Assembly (NCBI RefSeq): GCF_048128805.1
Contig: NC_136016.1
Span: 5,718,001-5,782,000, forward strand
Source of the DNA: Centroberyx gerrardi
Taxonomy: Eukaryota; Chordata; Actinopteri; Beryciformes; Berycidae
Length of the DNA: 64,000 bases
Direction: 5' to 3'
Part shown: positions 40,601 through 46,600 of the stretch, piece after piece
Layout: each line of letters opens with the position of its first letter
How positions within the stretch are numbered: the stretch's first letter is position 1
The notes under the pieces: generated by a model
Told to the model about the DNA's origin: nothing
What the model saw: the letters and a program-made list of their open reading frames with translations, nothing else
The model's database searches: none
Translations under genes and position numbers: made by a program

Positions 40601-43600
40601 ACCTGATGTAGTTTTAGGTAGTTTTGAAAATGAACACTATTTATTTTTCTGCAGTTATATATGAAATATTTGTAAGAATTTATAGAAACAGCCCTTTTGG
40701 AAAAGAGGTGCAAAAGTCATTTCTTGTGGTTAAATATGCTGCCACGCAATAGTATCATGCTATAATTCTATTTTACTCGACTGGCTACCTTGACCTCCCT
40801 GGCGCTGCCTGTAACCTGCACCCACACAGCTTGGCGCTGCTGAGTTTCATTGAAATGAACTGACTTGTAGTTGCTCTGCAGCCTTAGGTGTGAACAGTTA
40901 AAATGCTTGCTTTTTCACAGCAGAGATATTGTGGGTGAGAGGGCATTCAACAATAATAGCTTCAATGTTCTTAGGATGATTGCACCTATGTTGGTGATAA
41001 TAGCTGCGTGTATTCATAGAGAACTGAAGGACCAGCAGTACACTAGTTACTATGTATTGTGTTCCACAGTGCCATATTGCTGCTGCATATGATTTATTCA
41101 TTATGCGTTATGTCAAGGGGTTTTGTTCTGTTGAATGCATAGAAGCTGTGTGTGGAATACATAACATATGGTTGACTTAACTGCTTCTATTCCTCTTTCA
41201 GTGAAAGCCTCTTAACACTGTGAGCAAGACCAAGCATCCTGCTCACTATTAGCATTGCATCTTTGCCTTCAGGAGAGATGCTGCCTGTGTCTACTAGCAA
41301 TCCCACTGCCTTCTCATCCACACTCACACCTTCCTCTCCGTCACCCTTCCCTCCCCCGCTCTGGTTCACCCCCCCCACCCCCCACCCCACCCCAGGTATC
41401 CTGGTCATGATCTCTTCATTCACCCTAGCCATGGGCAACATCGGCGCCGCCAGGAAGCTGCACCACAATCTGCTTGACAACAAGTTTCACACACCCCAGT
41501 CTTTCTTTGACACCACGCCTATAGGACGCGTGATCAACCGCTTCTCCAAGGACATCTACGTGATCGACGAGGCGCTGCCCTCCACCGTGCTCATGTTCCT
41601 CGGCACCCTGTTCGTCTCCGTCTCCACCATGATAGTTATCGTTTGCAGCACGCCCATCTTTGCCGTCGTCATAGCGCCGCTGGCTTTCATATACATCTTT
41701 GTTCAGGTACTGGTTCTGTCGTGACGCTCCGGGAACCGCTAGGGCAAAACAGCCTCCACTTAGCGGATAATGCTTTCTGTTCTTCCCCTCTTCTTTTCAA
41801 AAAGTTTGGGATTCCCCCTGTTCCTGGAATGGCATGCCTCGTGCTTGCTGATGTAGTAGCTTTTTTAACACTCAACTTGGGCTTTTGTTTCAGCTTTCGA
41901 TGTTCCTGATGCTGATTTGCTGATATTCTGTCAGATCTCACATTCACTTTCCCCTCTCCGCAGCTCACACATTTCCTGTCGTGCCTGCTTACACACACAC
42001 ACACACACACACAGTATACAGCTATACAGCCTGGCCCCTATATGCACACACTGTAGTGAAGTAGACTTCAGTTCAGAGCCTGAGCTGAGAGCACTGTATA
42101 TATTTTAGGAACCAAATCCTCTCTTGGTCACAGGCAGTGTCTGCTGCTGACACTGGATGAGCAAGCCTTATGTGTTCCTCCCAAAAACAGGAATAATGCT
42201 CCAGGAGAAGAAGGTCTTTAGTGATCCATAACTCCCCTCTAGTGGCCAACCAGTAGGAATACAGCTGGGAGTCCGCTGGCCTTATCTAACCACAGGGTGT
42301 CTGGATTTGTTTCAGGGATTACACAAGCGGCGTCTGTGGCGCTTGTTAACGTTAGAGGCAATTTATACCTAAGACATTGTGCCAAAGAAACAACTTATTC
42401 ACTAGTGTGTGAAATGTGTACACATGTGAGTGAATGATTTCTTCTTGTGGTGTTGTAGAAGTAGAGCGGGTATGAATCAACCTCATTGAGTTCTCAGTTG
42501 GAAAATACAGGCTGAAGACTCGTTGGCGCTCACTGCAGGGTATCTGCAGGTTCTGACAAAGTCTTAGAAAGTCCTTAAATTTTTCACTATGTAATGAGTA
42601 GATTAGATAGTGACAGCTTCAGAGTCAGAGATGGAAAGTAAAAGTTTAAGTAAGTAGTTTAAGAACTTTCATAAGCTATGTTCAATCGGAAGTAAGCTGT
42701 TTTTTTACCAGCTTTTTGTTTCTTTATTTTGGTTAAATAACTATCAGTTTTGCTACTCTATATTGCCAATTCATATAAAACAATAGTGATTCAACCTATA
42801 TCCAGTTCATGAAAGCTTTTACATTTGCTCTTCTAAACACCCGGTGTCGGAAGTGATGCGTTTTATGTTTCCAGTTTGTTTGGAATAAATAGAAGAAGAA
42901 CTGGGTAGTTAGCATGAGCAGCGATAGCCACCATGGCTGGACAGACAAAGAAAAGAGCTGTAGCCACCTACAGAAACTCAAACTGCATCAACAGAAAATC
43001 CAAGCTCCACCCACACTGTTTGATTGACAGGTGATCTCTGGGAAGTACAGTGCAGAAACACCACAGCAATGAATGCTTAGCACCAAAGATGGAGACCAAA
43101 AAAAAAGACGATTACCACTTTAAATTAGTCTTAAATTCAATTGCAGGAAGCATAAAAAAGAAACATCTTACAAAGTGTTAAATTTGACTTTGTGAAACCT
43201 GCAGATACCCGGCTCTGAGAGTGGAATCTGCCAGCAGCACCTTGCATTTGTGATAGAAGAAGAAACAAGGACAAGGTCGCAGTCCAATTAACACGGGTGC
43301 TGTGTTGTCACACTTGCCCCCCCCCCAACTCTCTCCGTCTCCCAGGTGTGCTGTTGTTGGGTAACTGCCTGCTGTGCCGGGCCTACAGTATGCTGCGGGC
43401 GGCCAAGCTTACACACCGCAACATGCTTCAGAGGGTCCTGCGAGCGCCGCAGGCCTTCTTCGAGAGCAACCCCTCTGGGCGGGTCCTAAACCGCTTCAGC
43501 AAAGACGTGGACACTATAGACTCCCACATCCCAGACAATATTGACATATGGATGCGCACTTTCTGGTACACACTGAATGTGCTGCTCGTATGCTCTGCCC

Positions 43601-46600
43601 TCACCCCAATGTTCCTCATAGTCATAGCCCCGTTAATGGTGTTCTATTGGTGGGTTCAGGTAAATAGGAAACGAGTCTGCTAACTCATTAATACAGCATG
43701 CATGTCTGAGAGTGTTGTTGTTGAGTGTGTGTACCGGTAGATCGTTGCTTGTCGTGGAAGCGATGGTCACTGCCGTCCTAGTGTTGTAGTGGCAGCGTGG
43801 TTTGGCCTCTGCTAGTCCGGTAGTCGTAGCCCGCTGTAGCAGTAGTGGGTCAGTGGTCCGCTCACAACGGTTGCTCTGCTCAACAGCACCACTCAGGACA
43901 CAGCCGACACTGTTTTAAGGAATTGATTTGAAAGAAACACTTCATAAAATATTTAAACTCAGATTCTGCTGTGATTGGCAGAATGGAGTTTTAGCTATAA
44001 AAACATTTGTCAGAGGCAGAGCTCAGATCTCATTGGTTGAGTTAAACCTCAATGGGCGGAGACAAAGAACCACAGTTTTTCTGGCTAACTAAAGCCCAGT
44101 GAAAAAGACTAGAGGTAAGAGAGGAGGAGGCTAATATTAGGAAGCCTAGTGCCCTTACTACTAAATGGAAAAAAATGCAATCTAGCCATACTAAGTTATC
44201 TAGGTTAGCTAGTTAGCCTAGCTAACCCTACAAGTTCACACTAGCCATGCTAGATAGATACTAGGTAAGCTGGCTAACCAGCCTGCTGTCCTTGGAAGTT
44301 CATAAATACCATGGTCATGAATGAATGAAAAAAAATCATTGAAATTTATGTCTTTTATTTATATTTTGACCAGACTTCCCTCATCGCCATTCAAGTTTGC
44401 CAGTTAGCCAAGTCGTGCTCCAAAACACTGTGGTACTTTGGCTCCGCCCATTGAGGTTTGACTCAAGCAGTAAGATTATTTCTGTCTCCAGAGCAGCTCT
44501 GCCTCTGAAAAATGTTTGTATAACTAAAACTACAATCCATCTGTCATTGGCTGATGTTACTTTGTGGTAGCTGGAGAGCAGCCGTTCAGCAGCAGTTGCT
44601 AGTGGTGGTGTGTGTAGTGGCCATAACTGCTTCACCCTGGTAGAGATGAGATATCTGTTCATTCTTTTATAAAGTTTTTTTTTTTCATGACTCATAATGA
44701 TAAGACAAATTTCAAATCATCCAACACTAATTTTTGCAAAATAACACCTTGAGCAATGACTAATTTCCCTGGTAGCTTTGGTTCTGGCTTTTTAAACCAA
44801 TTTAATTTAAAACAACTATTTTGATGAGGCTTTGAGCTTATGAGTTTAGGTGGTGCAAGATCTAAAAGTGACTAGTTGCTTGTTTGGGGTGTCAAACATA
44901 AGGTTTGCTTTTAGGGTGTCATCCATAAGCTCTGCATTTTGAATGCCATTTCTGATTTATGTTGTTTAAAAATACTCTGTCTCCCTATTGATCCCTATTG
45001 ATCACAACATTTTATGAAATCACGTTGGAATAACCAGGTCATAGTAGGCTACCATTGATTACTTAAAATATATTCCTGTACCTGGCCTCAAGATGGCATA
45101 GTTCGCATGATGTATAACTTCCATTTGGCACGGGATTTGCCATCCATCAGGTTAACGCCACTGGGTAGATCTGATACAGATGCTAGCAGTTTGATAAAAC
45201 AAACTAGTTTTATTCCAGACACTGGGGTTTTAGGGTGTGTGTGTGTGTTCACATGTGCTTCTAACATATACTAACTGGACCGTCAAATTCCTAACAAACA
45301 GGTCGCCACTGCCAGCTATACTAATACAAGCTCATGATGAATCTTCATATGATTCTTTTGGCTTTGTCATGGCGTTCTCCCTGCATGGCCTGTCTCTTTG
45401 CTGCATCATTTGTCTTTTGATTTCACTATCAGAGAGGCTGTAACTGGAGCTTCTGTTTGCTTTGTACATCAAATTCTGCCTTAATGATTATTACACACTA
45501 TGGTGGTAGATTGTTAAAGTACTGCAAATGAAAGCCAAACCACTCACTACAACAATATGATGGTATATGGATACTAATGGAAACTGAAAATGTTCAAGCT
45601 TGTAGTTTATATATGTAATCGAACATATAAAGTTAACAATGTTAAATGCTAAATGTTATTTAGGTTGTGTATTTAGAAAAAAAAACACCTGCAGTTTTAA
45701 ATCCCACCAGTGATTTTTAAGATTGTCCATGTGCAGCATATGAAAAGAACTGGGCTGTACACTCTTCTTTTGGATAACATCAATTTTATTTATTGCTCAA
45801 ATATTGACAAAGTTTACATGCAACAAATTCTTGCCCTGACTAATTTGAATACGCTGTTTACATGCAGCATATTGGAATAAGACTATCCCACAAGATTCCT
45901 ATTTCCAAGCAATCTTAATATACTTATTGTTCGAAAAGATTAATTACCTCTAGGATACAAATGAGCTGTCATGTCCAATCAGTCACTTTCTTCCTGTAAT
46001 TAAATGCAGTCACATTGCTCTCAGAGTAAATTAGTGGCTCCCATGAAACTTTCTCACAAGTCATTTAATCCTGCTACTGCAGATGTGAGAAGGTCGGCTG
46101 TAAATTAAAGGTAGCTGTTAAAATTAATAACATGGACAATGAGAAATATTGAGAAAAAGGGGAAGAAACAACTCATGAATTCCAATGTACAGACTTAATT
46201 AGCTTATCTTGTATACATGTTCAAACAACCCTCCGATAGTCTGCCAAGTATCTCAGTACTGCACTTTCTAATTGCAGAATGACTTTGCAGACTTCAAGCA
46301 ACCCAATTAAATGAATTAAATTATGCGTTAAATTAAGTCTGTATGACCCGTAACCATTTAGCTTTAATGACTCATGGTTGTGGGACAGTTGGTTTGCATG
46401 TAGGCCTTGTCACTATCTCTGAAGAGCATTAGCTGGCATCATATCAACAGTTTGGAATTGGATATGAAATGAGCACTGCAGGTGTTTTGGCAACACTGGC
46501 TTTATTACTCATGTGTGTGTGGGCGTGCGTGCGTGTGCATCCTAACTGTTGAATATCTCAGTATGTGTAATGTGATGTTCAGTTGTAATGCTCTGTCTGT

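What the first reader, a model, noticed from the sequence alone, without database searches (positions are those of the whole stretch)
41396..43659. Tandemly duplicated exon 23 in abcc3: two alternative TM13-TM15 cassettes
Two consecutive exons encode the same segment of the second transmembrane domain. Both enter with G|GT, leave in phase 0 and end in VQ. They are about 37% identical by my count, with the coupling loop best kept (FF..NP/TP.GRV.NRFSKD..ID). Such divergence with open frames and sound splice sites implies an old duplication kept by selection. Mutually exclusive variants of internal exons are known, from memory, in the Drosophila MRP gene (exons 4 and 8). I know of no described case in vertebrate ABCC3. 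One gene would give two transporters differing in a substrate-lining segment.
Basis: partly seen in the sequence, partly recalled or inferred. Interest (0 to 1): 0.9.

Follow-up and report, generated by a model that had tools for sequence, protein, structure and literature searches.

The report
Ancient swappable exon in fish transporter
A fish gene for a membrane export pump (abcc3) carries two alternative versions of one membrane-spanning exon, kept side by side since early jawed fishes, so one gene appears built to make two different pumps.

Summary
In a complete abcc3 gene (10929-51215, +), exon 23 is present twice: 23a 41396-41706 (311 nt) and 23b 43346-43659 (314 nt). They share 38 of 104 residues, have ordinary GT-AG sites and the same phases (1 in, 0 out). 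Including both or neither breaks the frame, so a full protein needs exactly one. The 23b splice form assembled here equals, over 1547 residues, a database protein: Centroberyx gerrardi ABCC3 isoform X3. A 23b-like segment is in 131 of 175 proteins fetched, across ray-finned fish from bichir and paddlefish to percomorphs, and, in stitched gene models, in elephant shark. It is kept about as well as the rest of the protein (median 84.8% against 86.5%). It is best read as an old, selected pair of mutually exclusive exons, probably lost in tetrapods. 23b replaces TM13-TM15, with fixed changes around the one leukotriene-C4 contact of this segment. The same segment with the same limits is tandemly repeated in a mollusc MRP gene, so this looks like a vertebrate case of a known kind (invertebrate MRP exon arrays). 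Shared or independent origin is unresolved. No RNA data were available.

The parts
10929..51215 (+). abcc3 gene, exon 1 (10929-10964) to stop codon in exon 31 (51104-51215); exon 2 starts at 23034
   Evidence: tblastn and splice-site assignment; 23b form identical in 1547 of 1547 residues to P0010, Centroberyx gerrardi ABCC3 isoform X3
40363..40570 (+). exon 22, upstream constant exon, ends in phase 1
41396..41706 (+). exon 23a, 311 nt: TM13, coupling loop, TM14, start of TM15; ABCC3-type copy
   Evidence: best PDB match human ABCC3, 114 bits; Pfam ABC_membrane
41707..43345 (+). intron between the two alternative exons, 1639 nt
43346..43659 (+). exon 23b, 314 nt: alternative version of the same segment
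   Evidence: PDB matches SUR1 73, ABCC2 69-72, ABCC3 67, MRP1 65-66 bits; Pfam ABC_membrane; conserved in fish
46625..46824 (+). exon 24, downstream constant exon, entered in phase 0

Best explanation
Exons 23a and 23b of fish abcc3 are a pair of mutually exclusive, tandemly duplicated exons. Exon 22 (phase 1) splices to 23a or to 23b, and either splices to exon 24 (phase 0). Shown from sequence: both exons are intact and interchangeable, while joining both or skipping both shifts the frame to an early stop. Inferred: such mRNAs are removed by nonsense-mediated decay. Shown by comparison: 23b is conserved in ray-finned fish, and elephant shark models hold pieces of both exons, so the pair goes back at least to the common ancestor of chimaeras and ray-finned fish. 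Inferred: splicing factors choose the exon by tissue, and the two mRNAs make ABCC3 pumps that share everything but TM13-TM15 and so differ in substrate preference or rate. In TM14, 23b has D for L, I for M (the leukotriene-C4 contact M1092 of bovine MRP1), W for F, and R for a small residue.
For: Phases, frame and stops. 23b form equals an annotated isoform. In the first 120 of 347 hits, 113 are fish proteins with a segment 72-100% identical to 23b. 131 of 175 fetched proteins carry it; 12 models hold both exons, in 12 of 12 with a before b. Median identity over 109 long proteins: 84.8% in 23b, 89.0% in flanking TMD2, 86.5% elsewhere. Elephant shark tail 43-49 of 81 to 23b rows against 27-33 of 81 to 23a rows. 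22 alignment columns fixed for different states in 11 23a and 115 23b rows. Predicted structure places both exon limits inside helices.
Against: No RNA read was seen; the isoform names are automatic annotation. In paddlefish 23b is less alike (67.6%) than the rest of the protein (78.2%). No intronic pairing above shuffles was found that would explain the choice. Substrate change rests on homology alone; 13 of 14 listed leukotriene-C4 residues lie outside the segment.
Confidence: 0.85

Rival explanations
1. Origin A: 23b arose inside ABCC3 after its split from ABCC1, in early vertebrates, diverged fast, then settled under selection; independent of the invertebrate MRP arrays.
For: The AU test does not reject 23a, human ABCC3 and 23b as one clade: p 0.253 in the 47-row tree, 0.331 in the 37-row tree. 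PMC9741552 (section 17) calls the Drosophila and C. elegans events unrelated to each other, and PMC6071210 (passage) cites multiple independent duplications.
Against: In the best trees 23b lies outside 23a, human ABCC3 and bovine ABCC1; 23a is closer to ABCC1 than to 23b.
Confidence: 0.55
2. Origin B: 23b is a remnant of an MRP exon array older than the split of ABCC1, ABCC2 and ABCC3, kept in fish ABCC3 and lost elsewhere.
For: 23b is about equally far from SUR1, ABCC2, ABCC3 and MRP1 and branches outside ABCC1 plus ABCC3. A mollusc MRP has three copies with the same limits.
Against: 104 columns and long branches; AU tests undecided; treekit warns of long branches meeting.
Confidence: 0.3
3. 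23b is spliced in, but its protein is a trafficking, dominant-negative or otherwise non-transporting form rather than a second pump.
For: New charges in TM14 (D at 1091, R at 1095, bovine MRP1 numbering).
Against: The whole segment including the coupling loop is conserved, and the predicted fold is a normal ABCC half.
Confidence: 0.12
4. 23b is a dead or chance copy, or a poison exon used only to lower ABCC3 output.
For: Joint inclusion of 23a and 23b does shift the frame.
Against: A poison exon needs no conserved 105-residue protein: 72-100% identity in 113 of 113 fish proteins of the first 120 hits.
Confidence: 0.02

Closest known systems
Tandem exon arrays of invertebrate MRP genes (Drosophila MRP, C. 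elegans mrp-1, Anopheles, Nucella; Yue et al. 2017 RNA Biol, cited in PMC6071210, itself not held)
   Same: Same protein segment; in Nucella the same exon limits (..LQG to ..[11 protein letters not shown]), in Anopheles the same start; homologous neighbours; described as mutually exclusive in the literature (PMC6071210 passages; PMC9741552 section 17).
   Different: Two copies, in a vertebrate ABCC3 paralog; frame shift enforces single choice here; no intronic pairing found; common origin not shown. Drosophila has eight copies of one event.
ABCC9 (SUR2A/SUR2B) alternative exons
   Same: Mutually exclusive homologous exons in a vertebrate ABCC gene (PMC9741552 section 17).
   Different: From memory these are the last exons (C-terminal 42 residues in NBD2), not the TMD2 segment.
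Predicted ABCC3 isoforms in public databases, e.g. Centroberyx gerrardi isoform X3 (P0010)
   Same: The very protein: 1547 of 1547 residues identical to the 23b form.
   Different: Automatic annotation only; none of the listings seen shows a paper on the exon pair (searches were capped at 20 of 28, 10 of 44 and 10 of 78).

Membership tests
ABCC3 (MRP3) ortholog | Best match to ABCC3 among ABCC members | tested here: met
   23a best in PDB to human ABCC3, 114 bits, MRP1 next at 85; 23a rows plus human ABCC3 100/93 in the tree; whole protein equals a protein named ABCC3
ABCC3 (MRP3) ortholog | Conserved gene neighbourhood | tested here: inconclusive
   A WFIKKN-type ORF lies downstream; that WFIKKN2 neighbours human ABCC3 is recalled, not looked up
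Mutually exclusive tandem-duplicated exons | Adjacent homologous exons with like length, phase and splice sites | tested here: met
   311 and 314 nt, phase 1 in and 0 out, GT-AG, score 192 against at most 46 in 1000 shuffles
Mutually exclusive tandem-duplicated exons | A mechanism against joint inclusion | tested here: met
   Joint inclusion or joint skipping shifts the frame to a stop; the rule as in PMC5740500 (passages)
Mutually exclusive tandem-duplicated exons | Transcripts with either exon, not both | not testable with these tools
   No RNA data. Annotated isoforms with 23b exist, and 12 of 175 gene models contain both, all probably mispredictions
Mutually exclusive tandem-duplicated exons | Conservation of both copies | tested here: met
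   113 of 120 listed hits are fish with 23b; 23a beside 23b in 12 models
Invertebrate MRP exon arrays | Same protein segment and exon limits | tested here: met
   Nucella: same start and end; Anopheles: same start, earlier end
Invertebrate MRP exon arrays | Common origin with those arrays | tested here: inconclusive
   47- and 37-row trees, AU tests undecided
Invertebrate MRP exon arrays | Competing intronic RNA pairings that choose the exon | tested here: inconclusive
   Best contiguous stems between flanking introns were reached by 4, 26 and 3 of 40 shuffles; one species only, so no comparative test

The most novel reading that the evidence does not exclude
23b is a living remnant of an MRP exon array older than the split of ABCC1, ABCC2 and ABCC3. 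Jawed fishes kept it as a splice switch that gives ABCC3 a second substrate range through a charged TM14, and tetrapods lost the exon together with that range.
Probability: 0.27. Interest if true: 0.8.

Novelty: new member of a known kind. Interest (0 to 1): 0.62.

Why it matters
ABCC3 is treated as one basolateral efflux pump for glucuronides and bile salts (from memory). If ray-finned fish make two ABCC3 pumps by exon choice, fish toxicology and bile-salt work has been averaging two proteins, and assays outside exon 23 cannot tell them apart. The pair is also a natural experiment: two versions of TM13-TM15, each kept for hundreds of millions of years in one frame, so swaps would map what this segment does. 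It adds a vertebrate paralog to a segment that is repeatedly duplicated in animal MRP genes, and makes the question of shared or repeated origin testable.

Tried and rejected
Chance or dead copy: rejected by conservation. Two tandem genes: rejected, since the exons matched by the MRP1 query are otherwise single (linker exons and exon 1 not covered by it). Third copy in the window: none at E below 1. Crowding of branch points and U2/U12 incompatibility as exclusion mechanisms: unlikely, with a 1639-nt intron and ordinary GT-AG sites. Intronic docking and selector pairing: best stems reached by 4, 26 and 3 of 40 shuffles. Splicing-factor motif counts: no control made, nothing concluded. Dating by tree: undecided.

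Rows chosen or dropped: the 47 tree rows are 40 segments from 33 of the 175 fetched proteins, chosen by hand for spread, plus 2 window and 5 PDB segments; the reduced tree dropped 10 rows. The elephant shark row is partial (81 residues), has a long branch, and moves within 23b between the two trees. For fixed differences P0009 (a rows) and segments under 100 residues were dropped, and the 23a set is small and teleost only, 11 rows.

Limits of absence claims: the protein lists show 120 of 347 and 120 of 153 hits. One search shows all its 89; 73 name an organism and none of these is a tetrapod, but proteins over 1531 residues were out of range, and clusters at 90% identity can hide a 23b form behind a 23a one. 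Gar, coelacanth and elasmobranchs did not appear by name either, so absence there is weak evidence. That human lacks 23b rests on the ABCC3 chains in PDB, no 'ABCC' in the main text of PMC5740500 and ABCC9 as the only ABCC gene found in PMC9741552.
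Full report
What is in the window. A tblastn by exon and manual splice-site assignment give a complete abcc3 gene on the + strand: exon 1 at 10929-10964, exons 2-22 from 23034 to 40570, exons 24-31 at 46625-51215. The 23b splice form assembled from the window is identical, 1547 of 1547 residues, to P0010, which its source names 'ATP-binding cassette sub-family C member 3 isoform X3 [Centroberyx gerrardi]'. 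The window is therefore most likely from that berycid fish (lineage). Downstream is a WFIKKN-type ORF (Ig, Kunitz and NTR matches, a Kazal match below its cut-off); from memory WFIKKN2 also neighbours human ABCC3.

The two exons. 23a is 311 nt and 23b 314 nt. Both follow exon 22 in phase 1 and lead to exon 24 in phase 0. Joining both gives a stop within 23b, joining neither a stop in exon 24, so a full protein needs exactly one. Identity is 38 of 104 residues, with a score of 192 against at most 46 in 1000 shuffles; DNA identity is 158 of 311. No third copy is found at E below 1. [quoted passage not shown] passages) only the frame shift fits.

How old and how well kept. A protein search with the 23b region listed 120 of 347 hits. 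Of these 113 are fish proteins with a segment 72-100% identical to 23b; in models with 23b alone that segment is 33-40% identical to 23a. The other 7 are Anopheles or Nucella. Searches from the bichir and paddlefish copies (120 of 153 listed, all 89 listed) added paddlefish, more teleosts and elephant shark. Of the 175 proteins fetched, 131 carry a 23b-like segment (at least 58% over 60 residues) and 12 contain both exons, in 12 of 12 with a before b. Species named include bichir, paddlefish, tarpon, eels, arowana, shad, carps, characins, catfishes, salmonids, pike, cods, beryciforms and many percomorphs. In 109 long proteins the median identity to this fish is 84.8% in 23b, 89.0% in flanking TMD2 and 86.5% elsewhere; in bichir 72.4 against 75.7 elsewhere, in paddlefish 67.6 against 78.2. 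That is strong constraint on the 23b protein, somewhat weaker than on its flanks.

Elephant shark. Five Callorhinchus milii models (P0137-P0141) have a stitched exon 23 with a 23a-like head and a 23b-like tail. The tail matches 23b rows at 43-49 of 81 residues, 23a rows at 27-33 of 81, and the next best paralog, goby ABCC2, at 36 of 80; the head, put together from two models, matches 23a at 24 of 35 and 23b at 11 of 35. The simplest reading is that the gene holds both exons and the models merged them; the genome itself was not seen. The pair then predates the split of cartilaginous and bony fishes. No tetrapod is among the 73 of 89 hits that name an organism, and human ABCC3 in PDB has the 23a type, so loss in tetrapods is likely but not proved.

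Where it came from. In a 47-row tree 23b is one clade (100/100), 23a another (97/95) with human ABCC3 next (100/93) and bovine ABCC1 after that (93/76); 23b lies outside. A 37-row tree also leaves 23b outside, with a warning that long branches meet. The AU test does not reject 23a, human ABCC3 and 23b as one clade (p 0.253 and 0.331). So duplication inside ABCC3 followed by fast change, and survival of an older array, both stay open. The segment is also repeated in invertebrates: one Nucella model has three copies with the same limits, and six Anopheles models have several with the same start and an earlier end. The literature describes MRP arrays in several phyla as repeated independent events (PMC6071210, passages; PMC9741552, section 17). 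The primary paper, Yue et al. 2017, is not held; my memory of its abstract, that later vertebrates lack the duplication in MRP1, is unchecked.

What it changes in the protein. Pfam places both exons in the ABC transporter membrane region. A predicted structure of a pipefish protein with 23b (P0111, 946 residues, mean pLDDT 72.5, pTM 0.54) shows helices 421-472, 474-480, 485-525 and 529-569, that is TM13, a coupling helix, TM14 and TM15, with low confidence at 481-488; 23b covers 440-544, so both exon limits fall inside helices. By E-value its best solved match is human ABCC3, by TM-score bovine MRP1 is closer. Across 11 23a and 115 23b rows, 22 alignment columns (one of them the extra residue of 23b) are at least 90% fixed for different states. 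In TM14, by bovine MRP1 numbering: 1091 L to D, 1092 M to I, 1093 F to W, 1094 L to M, 1098 F to W; 1095 goes from G, A or S to R in 113 of 115. M1092 is the one residue of this segment among 14 listed around leukotriene C4 (PMC8267652, table passage). That the substrate range changes is inference.

How it is regulated. Not shown. A stem scan between the flanking introns found nothing clearly above shuffles. Choice by tissue-specific splicing factors is the default inference.

Literature. Searches pairing ABCC3 with mutually exclusive exons, splice variants, exon duplication, teleosts and exon 23 (listings only, capped) listed no paper on this pair. The word stem 'splic' does not occur in the main text of a fish-intestine ABC review, a fish ABC review and a carp ABC survey; a lamprey survey reports two ABCC3 genes (passages). 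Most subscription papers are not in the library.

Verdict. Expression and function remain to be shown.

Noticed in passing
window 57656-59221 (+): Long single-exon ORF (522 residues) with Ig, Kunitz and NTR domains and a weak Kazal match: a WFIKKN-type gene (name recalled).
   Followed up: partly
window 783-1166 and 3231-3560 (-): Minus-strand ORFs with an FHA domain and a Ras-association domain: part of a RADIL/RASIP1-like gene, name recalled.
   Followed up: partly
window 42529-43219: 24-nt inverted arms, 88% complementary, 643 nt apart, inside the intron between 23a and 23b: looks like a short DNA transposon that landed there.
   Followed up: partly
P0137-P0141 (Callorhinchus milii): Five database models of elephant shark abcc3 merge pieces of 23a and 23b into one false exon; the gene model needs correcting.
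   Followed up: partly
P0067 (Nucella lapillus), residues about 1042-1386: Three tandem copies of the same TM13-TM15 segment read into one mollusc MRP model, each with the fish exon limits.
   Followed up: partly
P0002, P0004, P0005, P0007, P0051, P0065 (Anopheles): Mosquito MRP models hold several copies of the segment that share the start but end earlier, before a common VVATLVVI stretch; the end of the segment seems constant there.
   Followed up: no
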